Below, one piece after another: positions 1-6,857 of a DNA stretch of 12,135 bases. Every line of letters starts with the position of its first letter. Positions within the stretch are counted from its first letter, which is position 1. The position numbers and the translations under genes were made by a program. Origin of the DNA: Candidatus Wolframiiraptor sp. (GTDB lineage: Archaea > Thermoproteota > Nitrososphaeria_A > Caldarchaeales > Wolframiiraptoraceae); the NCBI GenBank assembly GCA_003660635.1, contig QMUP01000011.1, forward strand, positions 1-12,135, written 5' to 3'. The notes under the pieces are model-generated. The model was given only the letters and a program-made list of their open reading frames with translations, made no database searches and was not told the DNA's origin.

Positions 1-312
1 GCCCTCATCAGAGGTGAAAAGATCTTCAAGGATTTCGAGCATGAGGGAACTCTCAGAAAGATAGCTGCCATGTTCTTGGGCACGCGTGTGAAGAATGCCC
101 GGAAAAAGAAGTTTTGGTTCCTATTAGAAGAGGAAAAAGATGGAAAGAGGACGTTCAATTTTGAGATGTTCGGGTTAGAACTCAAGGAGGCGGTGAGGGA
201 TGACTGCTGGATGACTCCGGGAATTCCTCTCCTCATTTTCATCACGGCCGGCTTTTTGGTATATGTAGGATTCGGTGACTTCCTTTACCTAATAATTAAG
301 GCCCTTCTTTAA
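1..312 (+). CDS. archaeal A24 prepilin/preflagellin peptidase (FlaK/PibD-like), C-terminal part
   Basis: The reading frame is open from base 1, so the gene begins upstream; the ATG at 70 is internal. The visible 103 residues hold a charged cytoplasmic-type stretch (EHEGTLRKIAAMFLGTRVKN, then a Lys-rich segment and LEEEKDGKRTF), followed by the motif WMTPGIPLLIFITAGF and a last hydrophobic helix ending FGDFLYLIIKALL. From memory, a W-x-TP-x-IP motif leading into a final membrane helix with a G-D pair is typical of the C-terminus of archaeal A24 aspartic peptidases, which cut class III signal peptides of archaellins and pilins. The catalytic Asp residues and the GxHyD region would lie outside the window, so activity cannot be judged. 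The stop (TAA 310-312) overlaps the end of the convergent primase-like gene by 4 nt. Another polytopic membrane protein is the alternative. Confidence 0.65.
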   Translation, partial: ALIRGEKIFKDFEHEGTLRKIAAMFLGTRVKNARKKKFWFLLEEEKDGKRTFNFEMFGLELKEAVRDDCWMTPGIPLLIFITAGFLVYVGFGDFLYLIIKALL

Positions 313-1184
313 AGCTCCTCACCAAATCTCCTAAATGCCTCAAGAATTTCCTGATCAAGCGGTTTATGCTTACGCCTCCTCGACCTCCCCGCGATATAAG
401 GTCCAATCGCGAAGAATGCCTTTTCAGCTAATTCATCACCCTCACCTAGAACGAATTTACGCCATGAATCCGGGAAATGTTTAAAGTCCCTTGAATCGGT
501 CCAGCTTATGTCGAATTCATTCACTAAATCCGGTGGGATGCATACCGCCACCCTGTTGACGGTTCTATGAAATGAGAGCGGGGCGGTGAACACCCTTTGG
601 ATGTCAATCTTGTTCTCCACGGCGACGCTCAGACTGGGGCGCAGCCTATTCACGATATATTGGGTTATTGAATAGGCTATGTCGAGTGGGTCGATTTTCT
701 TCCTGATATCCTCGCTAAAAGCATGGGGGTTTATGTGGACGTGCGCGCCCCTACCACTCCACTTAACGAACACCGAGTTAATGACGCCTTCTCTCTCCAA
801 AAGATCAATTATCTCCGACGCCTTCTGTATCACATCCTTCCAGCTGCCGTCCTTAAGATCTATGTCCCAAGTCGGTGAAGAAGCCAGTATATTTTCCCTA
901 GTAAACACGTCTTCCGGGTAATTTATATTGGAATAAATGTGGGCTGTGGCATAGAAGGCTCGGGGCTTAAACTCGGCGTATCTATCGATTATTTTTATGA
1001 CGTCATCCTCTGACGTGATCCTCAATGGCCGCCTACTTTTTCCCTCATATCTTATCATAATTGGCAATCCTCTATCATCGACTACTTCACAATGTATTGC
1101 CACCCAGCGGCCGCGGCAATACTCGTAAATTTCTCTTCTAACTTCGGGTCTGGAATAATGTTCTCGTATCAGCTCCCAATTCAT
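309..1184 (-). CDS. PriS-like archaeo-eukaryotic primase (AEP) superfamily protein without zinc stem
   Basis: This 291-aa protein carries the three AEP core motifs in order. Motif I is WDIDLKD (D107 and D109, metal ligands). Motif II is SGRGAHVH (143-150, nucleotide-binding His148/His150). Motif III lies around IDIQR (D194), followed by APLSFHR (201-207), which resembles the R-x-P-x-SLH segment of the small primase subunit. Such proteins polymerise RNA or DNA primers or act as translesion/repair polymerases. Canonical archaeal PriS is longer and has a Cys-rich zinc stem between motifs I and II. Here those motifs are only about 33 residues apart, and the only cysteines are at 23, 32 and 215, so this is probably not the replicative PriS. 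The start ATG overlaps the stop of the upstream ATPase (ATGA, 1181-1184), and a GAGG Shine-Dalgarno sits 7 nt before it. The C-terminus is Arg/Lys-rich (268-274). The family is well supported; the cellular role is unknown. Confidence 0.85.
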   Translation of the reverse strand: MNWELIREHYSRPEVRREIYEYCRGRWVAIHCEVVDDRGLPIMIRYEGKSRRPLRITSEDDVIKIIDRYAEFKPRAFYATAHIYSNINYPEDVFTRENILASSPTWDIDLKDGSWKDVIQKASEIIDLLEREGVINSVFVKWSGRGAHVHINPHAFSEDIRKKIDPLDIAYSITQYIVNRLRPSLSVAVENKIDIQRVFTAPLSFHRTVNRVAVCIPPDLVNEFDISWTDSRDFKHFPDSWRKFVLGEGDELAEKAFFAIGPYIAGRSRRRKHKPLDQEILEAFRRFGEEL

Positions 1185-1975
1185 AGAATATCCTCTGACC
1201 TCCGCTTGGCTTCCAATATTCTCCGCATAACCTCAGGTGGAAGTCTATAATCCTCCGCTCTCCTGTTTACTTTTCTAAGTACGGTTAAGCCTACTCCGGG
1301 CTTGATGTCGATTTCATGGAGATACCGGCTGTGATCTGTTTGTCTCATCTTCTCGATTATCACGAACCTCTTCAATTCCCCTCCTCTGAGAATTCTCCTG
1401 AACCTGATTATCCCATCAGCGATATGCTCTATCCCCCATCCAAAGCTCTCCGACGTCGTTATCGCGTACTGGCTTATGGCGAGGATCGTGAAGTTCCACT
1501 TAGATAAGACTTTCTTGAGATAATAGCTGTATCTCCGAGCCATGGCCGGTTTATCGAGCCAGAATGCGGAGAGGCTATCTATGGCGACCCTAGCCCTGCC
1601 GTATCCCAGCTCCTTCTTCGCCTCGATTACCTTGCTGACGAGCGCCTCCATATCTAGGGATTGTAGACTCCACCTATCCTCCCTGCCCATTAGGGCGTCT
1701 ATTATGATCAGTTTTTTCTCCTCAATAGCCCGTTGGAAGTCCATGTTGAATTGCGCGGCCTGCTTGATTATAGATTCACGGCTTTCCTCGGTGGTAACGT
1801 AAATGCATCGATCTCCGTCTAAGACGCCTTGATAGATGAAGTGTATTGAGAAAATGGTTTTCCCGCATCCAGGCTCACCGGTAACCGCGACCAAGAATCC
1901 CTCTGGGATACCGCCTTCTAGTAGCTCGTCTATTCCCTTTACCCCTGTCTTCAATCGCTCGACCTTGGAACTCAA
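1181..1975 (-). CDS. KaiC/RAD55-like RecA-superfamily ATPase
   Basis: The protein opens like a single-domain KaiC/RAD55 protein: VERLKTGVKGIDELLEGGIP. Walker A is GEPGCGKT (33-40), the KaiC-type acidic pair is in TTEES (E63/E64), Walker B is RVAIDSLSA (D133), and a KMRQTDHSR segment lies near residues 209-217. RAD55/KaiC ATPases hydrolyse ATP as oligomers and serve in recombination, archaellum assembly (FlaH) or signalling. I chose the TTG at 1975 (264 aa) because KaiC-like homology begins right after it and a TATA-like element lies about 60 nt upstream. A TTG at 2095 would give 304 aa, but it adds 40 residues without family resemblance, has no Shine-Dalgarno, and a TATA-like element sits only about 7 nt ahead of it. 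The stop overlaps the start of the primase-like gene, so the two are probably co-translated and may work together. The protein is not RadA: it lacks the helix-hairpin-helix N-terminus. Confidence 0.85.
   Translation of the reverse strand: MSSKVERLKTGVKGIDELLEGGIPEGFLVAVTGEPGCGKTIFSIHFIYQGVLDGDRCIYVTTEESRESIIKQAAQFNMDFQRAIEEKKLIIIDALMGREDRWSLQSLDMEALVSKVIEAKKELGYGRARVAIDSLSAFWLDKPAMARRYSYYLKKVLSKWNFTILAISQYAITTSESFGWGIEHIADGIIRFRRILRGGELKRFVIIEKMRQTDHSRYLHEIDIKPGVGLTVLRKVNRRAEDYRLPPEVMRRILEAKRRSEDIL
1182..1196 (-). promoter_or_regulatory. ATGA coupling junction with Shine-Dalgarno for the primase-like gene
   Basis: On the minus strand AGAGG (1196-1192) is followed by a 7-nt spacer and the ATG (1184-1182), whose last bases are also the TGA stop of the ATPase gene. 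A GGAGGT is present slightly further upstream (1205-1200). The arrangement indicates one transcript and termination-reinitiation or direct ribosome recruitment at the second gene. Confidence 0.7.
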
Positions 1976-2040: not shown

Positions 2041-2098
2041 CGGAGATTACTGGGTTGTGGGACTCCTTTGGCCATGTTTTCGCCCCAGATCTCAAGAC

Positions 2099-2106
2099 TT
2101 AAATAA
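2099..2106 (+). promoter_or_regulatory. TATA-like promoter of the Thr-rich surface protein
   Basis: TTAAATAA is centred about 35 nt before the ATG at 2138, so a short leader of about 10 nt is expected. Together with the minus-strand element at 2031-2040 it forms a divergent promoter region of about 160 bp between the ATPase operon and the surface genes. Confidence 0.5.
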
Positions 2107-2137
2107 TCTCGAAACGGCAAGTTTTCAGGGTCCTAAA

Positions 2138-3133
2138 ATGAGTGAAAGATCGCGACGTAGATTGTTAATACATTTTGTCGTGATCTTTGCCGTGCTAGGA
2201 TTCCTCTCTATTGGAATAGCCCAGCAGGTGATAACCACAACAACGACGACTGTGATAACGCTTCCCGGGACCACTAAGGTAATAACGGTAACTAAACCGG
2301 GAACCACCGCGGTCACGGAGATAGCTCACGGAGGATACAAGGTGGTTTACATAGAGATGCGGCCTAATCAGGAATGCGTCATAGTTGTGGAGGGAGAGCC
2401 AAAGTCGGTGATGACCATTCCCGGCGCAAGCTATCCTGGAACGACAGTAGCCTACACCATTCCGAAAACCGTTTATGAGACAACTATCACTAGGGTCGAG
2501 GGAGGGACAACTAGGACGACTACGGGATTCGAGTTTGTAACGATATCGGTCGTCACGAAGCTCGGACCCGTGACGATGACCATGACCGTCCCCGCGCCGA
2601 TATATGGCGAAATTAAGGAATATTGTAAGGTAATAACGGTAACCGTGATCAACCGCTTTGAAGCCCCCGAGCCCATGACCGTTAGGCTCGCTATCCCGGG
2701 ATTCACCTTCAAGGGCACGGTCGTCACGATACCGACGCTCTTTATCACCGGATCCATAACGGCCACGAGAACGACAGTTATACCAGGAACAACGTACACG
2801 ACCACGATTCAGAAAACGGGTACCACGATTCTCACGACTATGACTATCCCAGGGACGACCGTAGTTAAGACAGTTACCCTGCCTCCGAGGACTATAACGA
2901 AGACGATAACCTATAAGACGACCCTATCAAAGCCGCCTACCAAGACGGAGACCACGACCAAGCCCCCCAAGCCTAAGCCGACGAAGACCATCACCAGCGA
3001 AACCACGACGACGGAGGAGGTCGCAGCCGGAATCCCGACGACCATATTGATCATAGTAGCGGCGGCCGCGGCCATAGTCATCGCGATAGTCGTAGTCCTC
3101 CTAACGAGGAGATCCCGAACCACGAGAGTATAG
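2138..3133 (+). CDS. Thr-rich cell-surface stalk protein with C-terminal membrane anchor
   Basis: A 331-aa exported protein of no recognised family. It starts MSERSRRR followed by a hydrophobic helix (about residues 8-29, ending SIGIAQQ), which looks like a signal peptide or signal anchor. Next comes a long Thr/Val/Pro-rich region with five PGTT units (LPGTTKV, KPGTTAV, YPGTTVA, IPGTTYT, IPGTTVV). It ends in a Thr/Pro/Lys-rich stalk (about 266-290), a strongly hydrophobic helix (about 301-322) and a basic tail RRSRTTRV. The density of Thr predicts heavy O-glycosylation, with the chain lying outside the cell and anchored at its C-terminus (inference). Two cysteines (QEC and EYC) could pair. 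I preferred the ATG at 2138 over an in-frame one at 2057: the longer form puts 27 hydrophilic residues ahead of the signal helix and overlaps the TATA element. Its C-terminal stalk is related to that of the next gene. Confidence 0.75.
   Translation: MSERSRRRLLIHFVVIFAVLGFLSIGIAQQVITTTTTTVITLPGTTKVITVTKPGTTAVTEIAHGGYKVVYIEMRPNQECVIVVEGEPKSVMTIPGASYPGTTVAYTIPKTVYETTITRVEGGTTRTTTGFEFVTISVVTKLGPVTMTMTVPAPIYGEIKEYCKVITVTVINRFEAPEPMTVRLAIPGFTFKGTVVTIPTLFITGSITATRTTVIPGTTYTTTIQKTGTTILTTMTIPGTTVVKTVTLPPRTITKTITYKTTLSKPPTKTETTTKPPKPKPTKTITSETTTTEEVAAGIPTTILIIVAAAAAIVIAIVVVLLTRRSRTTRV
2275..2292 (+). repeat. 18-bp direct repeat, copy 1, inside the Thr-rich gene
   Basis: TAAGGTAATAACGGTAAC occurs here and again, identical, at 2626-2643, 351 bp away and in the same reading frame, encoding K-V-I-T-V in both. 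Exact identity at nucleotide level suggests a recent internal duplication or gene conversion within the low-complexity gene. Confidence 0.8.
2626..2643 (+). repeat. 18-bp direct repeat, copy 2, inside the Thr-rich gene
   Basis: Second exact copy of the 18-bp sequence at 2275-2292. After it the two copies diverge: the first continues T-K-P-G-T-T, the second T-V-I-N-R-F. Confidence 0.8.
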
Positions 3134-3213: not shown

Positions 3214-5403
3214 ATGAAGAAAACGTTAGCGGTGATCATAGCCGTCTTGTTAATTGGATTACTCTTCGCCGCTCTATATCCTTCGTTAATGCGGGGCGGC
3301 GAAAGTGGCACAACGACCTCTCTTCCCACTAAATCGAAGAAGTTCCCACCGCCTAAGAAGACTGTGACCTCGACTGTTCACGTCACCACGTCTGTTACCT
3401 TTACTGAGAAAACAAAGACCGTTACAACGTCACCTGGGACAACTATTCAGAATAAAGTTAGCCCAAAAACAAGTGAGAAAATACGGCTTTCCTTCCCATA
3501 TATCTACGAGAAGCCGGCGAATTGGAATGGAAAATGTATAATCTTCGTACATGGCATGGGCAGGGATAAATCGGTTTGGAGACGGGACATGGATGAATTT
3601 AAGAAATATGGATACTGCGTGTTCGCATTTGATCTACCGCATCACGGCGAGAGGGGGAGATATGAGCCGAAATACTTCTACGACGTCGTAAAGACGGGAT
3701 CCGAGGAAATATTGTTGATCGAAAAATTCCTTAGAGAGGATGGGGCAACCGAAGTTTACCTGATCTCGAGGAGCCTTGGAAGCATAGTCGCCGGAGTGGC
3801 CTTGGGCGAGAGCGGTATCGAGAAGGCTGCGCTTCTACTGGCTTCAGCGAACCTCACCTACGTTTTCTCTAATGTGGAGCCGAAGACGGAACAAGAAAGG
3901 GAGATGATCCAAGAACTCCTCAGCGACTTCAATAAGCTTAAGGAAATAGATCCGCTATATCGTCTGCCGGAATACGATGGCATGATCCACTTCCACTGCG
4001 GAAAGAAAGACCCACTTCTCCCACCAAAGTCGTGCATAATGGCTTATGAAGCGGCTTCCTCAGCGACTGAGAGGAAGATAATCTGGCATGACTTAGGCCA
4101 CGCGATGCCATTTGAGGAATATTTCAATGACGTCTTAGCTTTCTTCGAGGGGACCCCGCGGGAAAGCGGGTTATTGGCTTCGATCAACATCTCGGATGAC
4201 TGCGGAGATGGGATTTGCGGGGTTGACGAGGATTGGAGGAGCTGCCCCTATGATTGCATCGGTAAGAGGCTTCTGGTTGCTTTTCAACTCCACATAGAGG
4301 AAAGCCCCGGAAAAGCTCCCTACTATAATGAGAGCCGGGAGATATTCATGAAATATGCTGACACCTTAGATAGACTCGCTGAGGTCTTCGAGAAACATGG
4401 GGCGAAACTCTCGATACAAACGGAGAAGCAGTTCGCCGATGCCGACGTGAAGTTCGGGCGCCTAATCCTCAGAGAACTCCTAGAACGAGGACACGGGATC
4501 GGGGTTCAAAGCCACATGGGACACCACATCTCTGAACTCGGGTTAATGACGGATGAGCAGAAACTTGAGTATACCAGAGCCGTTAAGGAAGTCGTCGCTA
4601 AGGCCATAGGACGCGAGCCCACAAACATCGGAGGAGGATTCGAAATGGAAAACATAGGGCTACTAGGCGTATGCGATGGATGTCTAGGATTCATCTCGAT
4701 GACAGCTGTCGAGAAACCCTATTTTCTGAAAACTGGAAAAACCCCGACCCGGCTTCACCCATGGATCCTTCCAAATGTCCAGATGATAGACCTCAAAACA
4801 GAGGAATGGTTAATACATGACGAATATGGGAGCCTCGTATATATTCCGGGGTGGTATAAATCAAAGAGCTTCGAGATAGACTGCCGCCATGATTCAAGAT
4901 GCTTCGATGCAGCTACAGCCTCGCTTCAAGAAGCATTAAAGGACTTGGAAGAGGGTATGATAAACACGTGGTATGCCAGCTCCCATCTCTACCAATGCGG
5001 AGTCGATGAAGAGGCGGAGAAGGTGTTGAATGCGTATGACGAATGGCTTGGAAAACTTAAGCCGCTCGTGAAAAAAGAGGTCATAGTATTTCTCACCTTC
5101 GACGAGATCGCGGAGATTTATCTGAAGTGGGAGAAGGCGCGGCAACGCCTAACCGGTCAAGTTCCTCCTTATTCGGGATCACCCAGTCCCACCTCCGATT
5201 TTACGGCTTATTCGGATAAACCCCAACGAACGGCAGAAACCACGACAAAGCCGGGTACGACATACATTACCACGATAGGGGAGAAGGGGCAAGACGATGA
5301 CATTACCTGGAAAGACCGTAACAAAGACTATAACCTATACGACAACCTCACCAGAGACCAGCACTTCTACTCAAACCGGGACAACCAGCGCCGCGGCTCC
5401 TAA
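3214..5403 (+). CDS. surface-anchored alpha/beta hydrolase fused to NodB-like deacetylase-type barrel (frameshifted near its C-terminus)
   Basis: As read, 729 aa. Domain order: signal peptide/anchor (about 5-25); Thr/Pro/Lys-rich linker (33-80); alpha/beta hydrolase (about 90-312) with oxyanion HG (113-114), nucleophile elbow SRSLG (Ser187, first Gly replaced by Ser), probable acid Asp266 in GKKDP and His296 in GHAMP; a Cys-rich acidic loop (330-348, CGDGICGVDED then SCPYDC), resembling the CGDGxC...CPxDC loops of secreted proteins; then a glycoside hydrolase/deacetylase-type barrel (about 351-640) with LLVAFQLHIEE in the strand-1 position, GHGIGVQSHMGHH (427-438; H434 and H438 spaced as in the HTxxH motif of CE4 enzymes), and Cys pairs 487/490 and 557/563. 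The usual FDDG motif is absent, so activity of that domain is uncertain. From residue 693 on, the frame turns into charged sequence unlike the Thr-rich stalk expected (see the next entry). Substrate unknown; acyl or acetyl groups on surface glycans are plausible (inference). Confidence 0.75.
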   Translation: MKKTLAVIIAVLLIGLLFAALYPSLMRGGESGTTTSLPTKSKKFPPPKKTVTSTVHVTTSVTFTEKTKTVTTSPGTTIQNKVSPKTSEKIRLSFPYIYEKPANWNGKCIIFVHGMGRDKSVWRRDMDEFKKYGYCVFAFDLPHHGERGRYEPKYFYDVVKTGSEEILLIEKFLREDGATEVYLISRSLGSIVAGVALGESGIEKAALLLASANLTYVFSNVEPKTEQEREMIQELLSDFNKLKEIDPLYRLPEYDGMIHFHCGKKDPLLPPKSCIMAYEAASSATERKIIWHDLGHAMPFEEYFNDVLAFFEGTPRESGLLASINISDDCGDGICGVDEDWRSCPYDCIGKRLLVAFQLHIEESPGKAPYYNESREIFMKYADTLDRLAEVFEKHGAKLSIQTEKQFADADVKFGRLILRELLERGHGIGVQSHMGHHISELGLMTDEQKLEYTRAVKEVVAKAIGREPTNIGGGFEMENIGLLGVCDGCLGFISMTAVEKPYFLKTGKTPTRLHPWILPNVQMIDLKTEEWLIHDEYGSLVYIPGWYKSKSFEIDCRHDSRCFDAATASLQEALKDLEEGMINTWYASSHLYQCGVDEEAEKVLNAYDEWLGKLKPLVKKEVIVFLTFDEIAEIYLKWEKARQRLTGQVPPYSGSPSPTSDFTAYSDKPQRTAETTTKPGTTYITTIGEKGQDDDITWKDRNKDYNLYDNLTRDQHFYSNRDNQRRGS

Positions 5404-5542: not shown

Positions 5543-5578
5543 AACCCCTCTTCTTCTTAGTCTTGGAAAGGGAGGGTT
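5543..5578. terminator. possible shared terminator between convergent genes
   Basis: In the 52-bp gap between the surface hydrolase and the convergent epimerase gene, an imperfect inverted repeat (AACCCCTCTT with AAAGGGAGGGTT) encloses a pyrimidine tract (CCCCTCTTCTTCTT, 5545-5558). It could end plus-strand transcripts. The pairing includes a mismatch and G-T pairs, so support is modest. Confidence 0.3.
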
Positions 5579-6857
5579 ATCTTTTACCGCTCAGTCTCTC
5601 TAACTCCTTAGTAAGTTGATCAATTCCATATTGTGCCACAAATCCGGCAAAATATCCCGCAGCAGATAATGCATTGAATGGCTTTATGCCTCGGGCCATT
5701 AAGAAGAGCGTTATGGCTATCAGGGCCGCGACGCCTTCCTCGTTAAGCGGTCGATTGACCCAACTCATCTGCCATCTAGAGTCTCCGATTAGCAAGTCGG
5801 ATTTCTCGCCGAGTATGTAGATTGCCCCTTCGATTTCCGACGCCTTCCTCGTTAATATGCGATGTCTCTTGATGAAGTGGTCCTCAAAATCTATTCCAAA
5901 CCTTTGTCTGGCCTCTCCTAGATCGATTATTGAAGCGGTTAATGGTGATCCATTGAGGAACCCGAGTGCCAGTACCCCGGAGGCTTCGTTAATGGATTTT
6001 CCAAGCTCTAAGCGTTTTCCGAGGTAAACTACCTCCCCCTGTACCGCGCCGCCCACCCTGTGCTGTACACCTAGGGCTGACAGAAGTTTAATCACGCGAT
6101 CATCGAGATCATCTAAGAGAATTACATCGAGGATTTCGTCCCGGGCCGAGCGGAGCGCTTGCCTCGCGTTTCCCGGCCCCATAACGATTTCTGCTTCAGG
6201 CGGGATTCCAATCGGCGCGATCACGACTTCGCCGCAGTAATCGGCTGCTGTAGGCATACCGAGCTTCGGCCTGTGGAAAGTCACTGTTATATTCGCGTTA
6301 ACGGCGAGATCTGTTACCTCTCCGGTATCGGGATTTACGCCGGATGGTATGTCTACGGAAATTTTCAGCGCCTTGGCGGAGTTAATTAATTGGATGACGG
6401 ACCTCCACGGTTCCCGAATAGCGCCTCTTATTCCGGTTCCAAAGATAGCGTCGACCACGACATCGGCGGATTCGACTTGATCTCTTATTCGATCGAGATC
6501 GCCAACTTCCTTCACGATATGCAATTTCACGGACTCCTTCATTGATCGAATTATCTCGAAGTTCCTCTTCGCCTCAGCTGTCCTTATTCTATTTGGGTCG
6601 CCGATTAAAATCACGGCGACATCGGCTCCTAATCCGGCGGCGTGTCTCGCTGCCACAAAGCCGTCTCCGCCATTATTCCCCGTGCCGCAAAAAACCACCA
6701 TCTTTCGCCTCGATAGACCGCCGAGCCATTGGTACGCTATTCTCGCAACCCAGGCCCCCGCGTTCTCCATGAGGAGATCTCTCGGAATTCCCAGCCATTC
6801 CGCGTTTTCATCTATTGCCGACATCTCAGAAGACGATATTCCTCCCCAGCCCTCCAA
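5577..6857 (-). CDS. nnrE: NAD(P)H-hydrate epimerase with a reduced, motif-less dehydratase-like domain
   Basis: Residues 1 to about 222 are a full YjeF_N epimerase domain, which interconverts R- and S-NAD(P)HX, the damaged hydrated cofactors. Motifs: LMENAG (29-34), CGTGNNGGDGFVAARH (57-72), DAIFGTG (136-142), VDIPSGVNPDTG (168-179), TFHRPKLG (193-200). In archaea and bacteria this domain is often fused to an ADP/ATP-dependent dehydratase (NnrD) of ribokinase fold. Here IGIPPEAEIVMGPGN (217-230), RILTRKASEIE (333-343) and a tail GIKPFNALSAAGYFAGFVAQYG (390-411) align by eye with NnrD landmarks. However, the N-HKGDxGR/GGS region and the N-x-GMxTGGTGD loop with its catalytic Asp are missing, and the half is about 195 residues instead of roughly 280. 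The start TTG is chosen because GAGGTG lies 7 nt upstream and the family's usual N-terminus begins just after it; the first ATG (codon 12) would cut into the domain. The gene is last in the minus-strand run. Confidence 0.9.
   Translation of the reverse strand: MEGWGGISSSEMSAIDENAEWLGIPRDLLMENAGAWVARIAYQWLGGLSRRKMVVFCGTGNNGGDGFVAARHAAGLGADVAVILIGDPNRIRTAEAKRNFEIIRSMKESVKLHIVKEVGDLDRIRDQVESADVVVDAIFGTGIRGAIREPWRSVIQLINSAKALKISVDIPSGVNPDTGEVTDLAVNANITVTFHRPKLGMPTAADYCGEVVIAPIGIPPEAEIVMGPGNARQALRSARDEILDVILLDDLDDRVIKLLSALGVQHRVGGAVQGEVVYLGKRLELGKSINEASGVLALGFLNGSPLTASIIDLGEARQRFGIDFEDHFIKRHRILTRKASEIEGAIYILGEKSDLLIGDSRWQMSWVNRPLNEEGVAALIAITLFLMARGIKPFNALSAAGYFAGFVAQYGIDQLTKELERLSGKR

What the first reader, a model, noticed from the sequence alone, without database searches (positions are those of the whole stretch)
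309..1975. Translationally coupled KaiC/RAD55-like ATPase and stand-alone PriS-like AEP protein without zinc stem
A RecA-fold ATPase is joined by an ATGA overlap to a 291-aa protein with all AEP catalytic motifs (DxD, SGRGxHxH, motif III Asp and SLH-like segment) but no Cys-rich stem between motifs I and II. No large primase subunit (PriL) is adjacent. AEP proteins paired with dedicated ATPases or nucleases are known in repair (Ku-LigD), plasmid replication and defence. An ATPase loader plus AEP could be an archaeal repair, damage-tolerance or anti-element module. Seen: motifs and overlap. Inferred: joint function.
Basis: partly seen in the sequence, partly recalled or inferred. Interest (0 to 1): 0.7.

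Follow-up and report, generated by a model that had tools for sequence, protein, structure and literature searches.

The report
Archaeal RecA-paralogue–Prim-Pol gene pair
Many uncultured archaea carry two tightly linked genes, a relative of the recombinase RadA and a small DNA-making enzyme separate from the cell's normal primase, which probably act together to copy across or repair damaged DNA.

Summary
On the minus strand, a KaiC/aRadC-type ATPase (SSO2452 family; 1181-1975) overlaps by ATGA a 291-aa AEP/Prim-Pol protein (309-1184) with all catalytic motifs and no zinc stem. Neither refutation condition holds: the same genome has separate PriS and PriL, and the pairing is conserved across several archaeal phyla. 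The AEP belongs to an apparently undescribed family with two old subfamilies. In one, 42 of 51 tree members have the ATPase gene within 1 kb; in the other (29 members, mostly with an extra C-terminal part) none does. Paired genes share a tree (r=0.91) that departs from that of canonical PriS (r about 0.4) and seem to have moved together between lineages. By sequence the AEP is nearest PriS; its predicted fold is nearest the repair enzymes Prim-PolC and LigD polymerase. No Ku, virus, plasmid or defence link was found. Genomes with the AEP mostly lack a Y-family polymerase (17 of 124 have one, against 173 of 273 without the AEP), but phylogenetic correction leaves this suggestive only. Best reading: a damage-tolerance module in which an ssDNA-binding RadA paralogue brings a Prim-Pol to gaps or stalled ends, like bacterial ImuA-ImuB-DnaE2. 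Interaction and activity are inferred.

The parts
1181..1975 (-). KaiC/aRadC-type RecA-fold ATPase, SSO2452 family (264 aa from TTG at 1975; open to a TTG at 2095)
   Evidence: TIGR03881 373 bits against cut-off 247.8; PF06745 195 bits; best PDB match 2w0m SSO2452, E 1.4e-101
1856..1879 (-). Walker A of the ATPase (GEPGCGKT)
   Evidence: read from the translation; motif name recalled
309..1184 (-). short (solo) AEP/Prim-Pol protein, 291 aa
1181..1184 (-). ATGA overlap of ATPase stop and AEP start
   Evidence: sequence; the same 4-base overlap (ATG or TTG start, the start codon nearest the stop being chosen mechanically) in 23 of 42 loci with the ATPase upstream
858..869 (-). AEP motif I, WDID (residues 106-109)
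   Evidence: D107 and D109 invariant in 61 aligned sequences
741..758 (-). AEP motif II, SGRGAH (residues 143-148)
   Evidence: S143, G144, G146, H148 invariant in 61
567..605 (-). AEP motif III region, D194 to H206 (DIQRVFTAPLSFH)
   Evidence: R197, P202, L203, H206 invariant, D194 at 90% or more; aligns with PriS VDIKRILRLPSTLH
312..389 (-). basic C-terminal tail GRSRRRKHKPLDQEILEAFRRFGEEL (residues 266-291), partly low confidence in the model
   Evidence: [PKR][LIV]DxxI found by pattern after the core in 33 of 42 paired short AEPs, 3 of 9 unpaired, 3 of 10 mid, 1 of 19 LONG; pLDDT under 50 at 267-272

Best explanation
The two genes encode a DNA damage-tolerance/repair module. The upstream protein is an aRadC-family RadA paralogue, a RecA-fold ATPase whose Sulfolobus relatives bind single-stranded DNA and modulate RadA. 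The downstream protein is a Prim-Pol of the AEP superfamily, distinct from replicative PriS. Proposed mechanism: the ATPase assembles on ssDNA at stalled forks, post-replicative gaps or resected ends, restrains RadA-driven recombination there, and brings or activates the co-translated Prim-Pol, which extends the 3' end, fills the gap or reprimes past the lesion. In many of these lineages the module seems to fill the niche that Y-family polymerases fill elsewhere. Shown here: genes, motifs, conserved pairing, shared evolution, presence beside canonical PriS/PriL, predicted fold of the AEP, no Ku match. Inferred: catalysis, physical interaction, order of steps, and the link to lesion bypass.
Against: Of 60 genomes with the ATPase, 21 lack the short AEP (5 have the LONG form, 1 a degraded copy), so the ATPase has a job of its own. 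In 7 of 41 genomes the short AEP is not near the ATPase. The Y-family anti-association is not significant by independent pairs (169 genomes: 3.9 opposite, 0.5 same, median p 0.22; reversed 4.8 to 0.3, p 0.125; 96 genomes: 2.3 to 0.2, p 0.5), Pagel's test is prone to false positives from single old events (my own knowledge), and the ATPase alone shows the same anti-association (11 of 60 against 27 of 41). AEP-bearing genomes of family f21 (six, LONG by frame length) all have a Y-family polymerase. Foldseek's E-values separate the nearest folds less than Z does (Prim-PolC 4.7e-8, human Pri1 1.3e-7). The C-terminal tail thought to dock the ATPase also occurs in some forms without it.
Confidence: 0.55

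Rival explanations
1. A Ku-independent end-joining or short-gap repair polymerase, as Prim-PolC acts with LigC in excision repair or as PriSL acts in microhomology end joining in Saccharolobus; the ATPase holds or selects ends and has no role in lesion bypass.
For: Fold nearest Prim-PolC, LigD and Methanocella NHEJ polymerases. Ku matched in 0 of 101 genomes, so any such route would be Ku-free, as described for PriSL (PMC12019639 passages). A gene clustering with an ATP-dependent DNA ligase lies in the fetched stretch near 4 AEPs (L079, L083, L084, L117; only the L117 protein was scanned).
Against: The ligase neighbour is rare (4 loci of 81) and in 3 of the 4 the AEP has no ATPase beside it; the Prim-PolC 5'-phosphate pocket residues N20, K23 and Y25 fall before the aligned range, which starts at chain residue 33.
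Confidence: 0.25
2. The ATPase is the main player (recombination control) and the AEP is its accessory primase, making primers or extending D-loops during recombination-dependent restart.
For: The ATPase is found without the short AEP in 21 of 60 genomes, whereas the short AEP is found with the ATPase in 39 of 41; S. tokodaii RadC2 interacts with RadA and Hjc and RadC1 stimulates RadA (PMC4080772 passage).
Against: Nothing here distinguishes D-loop extension from gap filling.
Confidence: 0.12
3. A defence or mobile-element module.
For: [quoted passage not shown] the pair seems to move horizontally.
Against: No relatives in IMG/VR, PLSDB or INPHARED; no PADLOC match for the AEP, and for the ATPase only a RecA-fold match to mad8 (28 bits, E 2.8e-7); window neighbours scanned are housekeeping, transport or surface genes; some AEP is in 21 of 22 genomes of the window's family.
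Confidence: 0.04
4. Conserved adjacency without shared mechanism: the ATPase is a KaiC-like signalling protein and the AEP acts alone.
For: KaiC-family names; no interface tested.
Against: The ATPase belongs to the SSO2452 family, whose Sulfolobus member binds ssDNA; joint evolution and gene overlap.
Confidence: 0.1

Closest known systems
Mycobacterial Prim-PolC and LigD polymerase domain (Prim-PolD), Methanocella NHEJ polymerase
   Different: 13-16% identity; the sequence profile finds PriS, not these, in the PDB; no Ku match in 101 genomes; partner is a RadA paralogue
Canonical archaeal PriS
   Same: Motifs I-III; profile-profile probability 96.5% to PriS of the same lineages
aRadC / SSO2452 / RadC1 (Rad55-like) proteins
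   Same: The window ATPase passes TIGR03881 and is 60-89% identical to those beside other short AEPs
   Different: In the passages read, the Sulfolobus proteins are described without an AEP partner
Bacterial ImuA-ImuB-DnaE2 mutasome and RecA-Pol V
   Same: Works-like comparison: a RecA-fold protein paired with a specialised polymerase for damage tolerance (PMC11791113 passages)
   Different: Polymerases of other families (Y and C there, AEP here); no RecA-NT motif shown here

Membership tests
AEP/Prim-Pol superfamily | Motif I DxD, motif II SGxGxH, motif III Asp followed by R..P.S.H | tested here: met
   Invariant or nearly so in 61 aligned relatives; DxD and SGxGxH in 80 of 80
AEP/Prim-Pol superfamily | AEP fold | tested here: met
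Canonical PriS (PF01896) | Pfam gathering score | tested here: not met
   Window protein 17.7 bits, cut-off 26.8; 4 of 61 relatives match at E 0.01; the relative in G015 passes with its neighbours in the frame, 28.6 bits
Canonical PriS (PF01896) | Being the genome's replicative PriS with PriL | tested here: not met
   A separate PriS frame (80.4 bits) and PriL (97.1 bits) are in the same genome
LigD polymerase / Prim-PolC (PF21686) | Pfam gathering score | tested here: not met
   No match listed for the window protein at E up to 1; 4 of 61 relatives match at E 0.01; L027 just passes, 27.5 against 27.4
LigD polymerase / Prim-PolC (PF21686) | Ku or LigC/LigD partner | tested here: not met
   Ku match in 0 of 101 genomes; no ligase among the ten window proteins scanned
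LigD polymerase / Prim-PolC (PF21686) | 5'-phosphate pocket, wedge residues, Loops 1-3 | not tested
   Residues named in PMC7442782 (passages); no residue-level superposition was made
aRadC / SSO2452 family (TIGR03881) | NCBIfam cut-off | tested here: met
   373 bits, cut-off 247.8
aRadC / SSO2452 family (TIGR03881) | ssDNA binding, RadA modulation | not testable with these tools
   Reported for Sulfolobus relatives only
Bacterial mutasome (works-like only) | RecA-NT-like docking motif on the polymerase | tested here: inconclusive
   A conserved basic tail with LDxxI exists but is not restricted to paired forms

The most novel reading that the evidence does not exclude
An archaeal mutasome: a RadA-paralogue-dependent Prim-Pol that replaces Y-family translesion polymerases over a large part of the Thermoproteota-related archaea, assembled from parts unrelated to the bacterial and eukaryotic systems and passed between phyla as a two-gene cassette, with an old sister Prim-Pol (extra C-terminal domain) doing a related job without the ATPase.
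Probability: 0.3. Interest if true: 0.85.

Novelty: new variant of a known kind. Interest (0 to 1): 0.66.

Why it matters
How archaea without Y-family polymerases tolerate replication-blocking lesions is, to my own knowledge, open, and the role of RadC1 in recombination is described as still under debate (PMC4080772 passage). A conserved partner gene with a recognisable Prim-Pol fold gives this RadA paralogue a concrete, testable function. It also adds a Prim-Pol family with no NCBIfam or PADLOC match and no Pfam match over a cut-off for the window protein, found in genomes titled Baldrarchaeota, Njordarchaeota, Odinarchaeota, Bathyarchaeota, Brockarchaeota and Aigarchaeota.

Tried and rejected
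Only PriS of the genome: rejected. Strain-specific pairing: rejected. Ku-type NHEJ: Ku match in 0 of 101. Virus or plasmid origin: no relatives; the BFVD fold search gave only distant proteins, best E 1.4e-6 at 14% identity. Defence: no PADLOC match for the AEP. An AEP-specific docking tail on the ATPase: rejected, since the tail (REDxxLPxxVxxKI) is also clear in 9 of 11 ATPases without a neighbouring AEP and recognisable in the other two. A RecA-NT-like mimic in the AEP tail: left open; the tail is present in some unpaired and mid forms and missed by the pattern in 9 of 42 paired ones. Conserved operon partners other than the ATPase: none found; larger neighbour clusters were confined to the window's own lineage but for one outlier (L133), and clusters spanning lineages hold at most 7 loci. 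A ligase neighbour was seen in 4 loci only. C-terminal domain of the LONG paralogue: no Pfam match over a cut-off; the fold search was dominated by the AEP domain, so that domain is untested. The Y-family anti-association weakened under independent pairs; a first idea of adding hand-picked genomes was dropped as biased and every fourth further handle was taken instead (77 genomes, 73 with PriS). Classification: short, mid and LONG were assigned by me from frame length and C-terminal motif; G086 (contig-edge fragment) was counted as AEP-bearing but neither short nor LONG; G081 (degraded copy) was counted as AEP-bearing and in the raw table, and as lacking it in the tree tests; L077 (broken) was left out of the tree and L132 dropped out. 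Five of 101 relatives are missing from the PriS tree (96 rows). Literature: no report of this pair was found in the searches; the library holds only open-licence papers, and the key SSO2452 paper (PMC3387904) was not held. Papers were seen as listings, abstracts in listings or search passages, none in whole.

Full report
What is there. The window is contig 11 of a 1.23-Mb, 245-contig genome, 83% complete. The nearest relatives by this protein carry titles of Aigarchaeota, Thaumarchaeota, Wolframiiraptor and Terraquivivens genomes, so it is probably a member of the Wolframiiraptoraceae. On the minus strand an ATPase gene ends in TGA at 1181-1183 and an AEP gene starts with ATG at 1184-1182. The ATPase scores 373 bits against TIGR03881 (cut-off 247.8) and its best solved relative is SSO2452 (2w0m, E 1.4e-101). 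The AEP has no family match over a cut-off: DNA_primase_S 17.7 bits against 26.8, and no NCBIfam family. Its catalytic motifs are invariant among relatives, and it has no cysteines between motifs I and II. The convergent neighbour (1-312, archaeal A24 peptidase C-terminus) and the other window proteins scanned are unrelated.

It is not the replicative primase. The same genome holds a canonical PriS frame (411 aa, 80 bits) and PriL on other contigs. Canonical PriS is found in 97 of 101 genomes and in all 77 that are at least 90% complete and at most 5% contaminated.

Distribution. The AEP occurs in 52 of 101 genomes of the relatives set, own included, and in 124 of 397 genomes drawn evenly from the phylum, 67 of 170 genera. 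A scan of the 84,980-species collection gave 192 relatives, of which the best 80 were kept. Their titles include Aigarchaeota, Brockarchaeota, Bathyarchaeota, Methanomethylicota, Culexmicrobium, Njordarchaeota, Baldrarchaeota, Odinarchaeota and Thermofilaceae. None was found in viral, plasmid or phage collections.

Two subfamilies. A tree of the window and 79 of the 80 loci (L077 left out) splits at a branch of 99 SH-aLRT into 51 and 29 rows. The 51 are short (about 290 aa), but for one called mid by its long open frame. In 42 of them the ATPase lies within 1 kb: 41 upstream on the same strand and one (L133) divergent; in L112 another ORF lies between. Of the 29, 19 carry a C-terminal domain with the conserved stretch GRFQxMALLQAARY...AKSFGLNRAIFYAWAK, 9 are mid-length (most with a different C-terminal extension, one cut by a contig end) and 1 is short; none has the ATPase beside it, though three of these loci have under 900 bases upstream, and one (L105) has distant KaiC-like genes (32% identity) about 3 kb downstream. 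The 4-base overlap seen in the window recurs (ATG or TTG) in 23 of the 42 loci with the ATPase upstream; others are a few bases to several hundred apart. No other neighbour is shared widely across lineages.

Dependence and joint history. I classed 41 of 101 genomes as having the short form. The ATPase is on the same contig within about 2.5 kb in 34 of these 41. The ATPase passes its cut-off in 39 of 41 and in 21 of the other 60 (Fisher p 4e-10; independent pairs 7.0 to 0.1, median p 0.016; Pagel p 2e-7). So the AEP seems to need the ATPase, and not the reverse. Distances on trees of 28 genomes correlate at 0.91 between AEP and ATPase, but only 0.42 and 0.38 with canonical PriS; the partial correlation is 0.90 (p 0.0005). 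The plainest cause is transfer of the pair: against family f10, which matches Brockarchaeota contigs by length, the window's AEP is 59-60% and ATPase 79-80% identical, while PriS is 33-34% in the two genomes compared. Adjacent genes can travel together without acting together, so this supports but does not prove a module. Decay is also seen: G009 has a frameshifted ATPase and no AEP, and G081 has a degraded AEP beside an ATPase.

Link to damage tolerance. Ku matched in 0 of 101. Y-family polymerase (PF00817) matched in none of the 22 genomes of the window's family and in 38 of 101 relatives, 9 of which have the AEP. In the phylum sample it is present in 17 of 124 AEP-bearing and 173 of 273 AEP-lacking genomes. 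A Pagel test on a PriS tree of 169 genomes (96 relatives and 73 from every fourth further handle) prefers dependence (LR 23.3, p 1e-4; on the 96 alone p 0.049), but independent contrasts are too few (3.9 opposite, 0.5 same, median p 0.22). I treat this as suggestive. The ATPase alone shows a like pattern (11 of 60 against 27 of 41), so the cause may be the lineage or the ATPase, and six LONG-bearing genomes of family f21 go against it.

Mechanism. For relatives of the ATPase, reviews report ssDNA binding tighter than RadA and inhibition of D-loops (SSO2452; PMC8708640 passage), stimulation of RadA by S. tokodaii RadC1 and a hexameric ring (PMC4080772 passage), and UV-B and cisplatin sensitivity, but normal H2O2 survival, of the S. 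acidocaldarius rad55 deletion (PMC10003305 passages). Reports of RadA inhibition and RadA stimulation thus differ. With a Prim-Pol as constant partner, the simplest model is that the ATPase marks ssDNA at blocked forks or gaps, holds RadA back and hands the 3' end or template to the Prim-Pol. The best parallel I know is RecA-fold ImuA' bound by ImuB in the mycobacterial mutasome (PMC11791113 passages). I looked for a docking motif: the ATPase tail is not specific to paired forms, and the AEP's basic LDxxI tail is common in paired forms but not exclusive.

Verdict. A real, conserved, apparently undescribed pairing. It is a new variant of a known kind (RecA-fold protein plus specialised polymerase; AEP plus partner), with activity and interaction still unshown.

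Noticed in passing
L222:2119-3498 (G014) and L219:2334-3752 (G020): The ATPase gene carries an in-frame insert of about 170-200 aa after ISQYAITT that starts with Ser and ends HN before Ser, which looks like a mini-intein.
   Followed up: partly
L220:2917-3756 minus strand (G003), also L221 (G006): In two other genomes the ATPase gene is interrupted; in G003, a few residues from the intein site, by about 1.4 kb holding a 279-aa ORF with two LAGLIDADG-like stretches. Intron, broken intein or free-standing endonuclease is open.
   Followed up: partly
for example L039:5437-6894, L097:5977-7371: A sister AEP (about 460 aa) has a highly conserved C-terminal domain (GRFQxMALLQAARY, AKSFGLNRAIFYAWAK) with no Pfam match over a cut-off; modelled as helices plus a small sheet.
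   Followed up: partly
L078, L082, L083, L088, L096, L117, L118, L119: A third form (about 410-440 aa) has a different C-terminal extension, ending near KxWLLSHGPPR in several.
   Followed up: no
L117:7233-9020, L083:3483-5090, L079:2176-3876, L084:1-1096: A gene of one cluster, an ATP-dependent DNA ligase in the member scanned (L117), lies within about 5 kb of the AEP in four genomes; in L117 it is convergent and overlaps by 4 bases.
   Followed up: partly
genomes G000-G021: No Y-family DNA polymerase was matched in any of the 22 genomes of the window's family.
   Followed up: partly
window 1-312 and 309-1184: The convergent archaeal A24 peptidase gene and the AEP gene overlap by 4 bases at their stop codons.
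   Followed up: no
window 5577-6857: A YjeF-type protein has the N-terminal domain match (28-200) but no Pfam match in its C-terminal half.
   Followed up: no
window 2057-3133 and 3214-5403: Two adjacent probable surface proteins share Thr-rich stretches (TTTT, PGTT, KTVT-like); the second has an alpha/beta hydrolase domain match.
   Followed up: no
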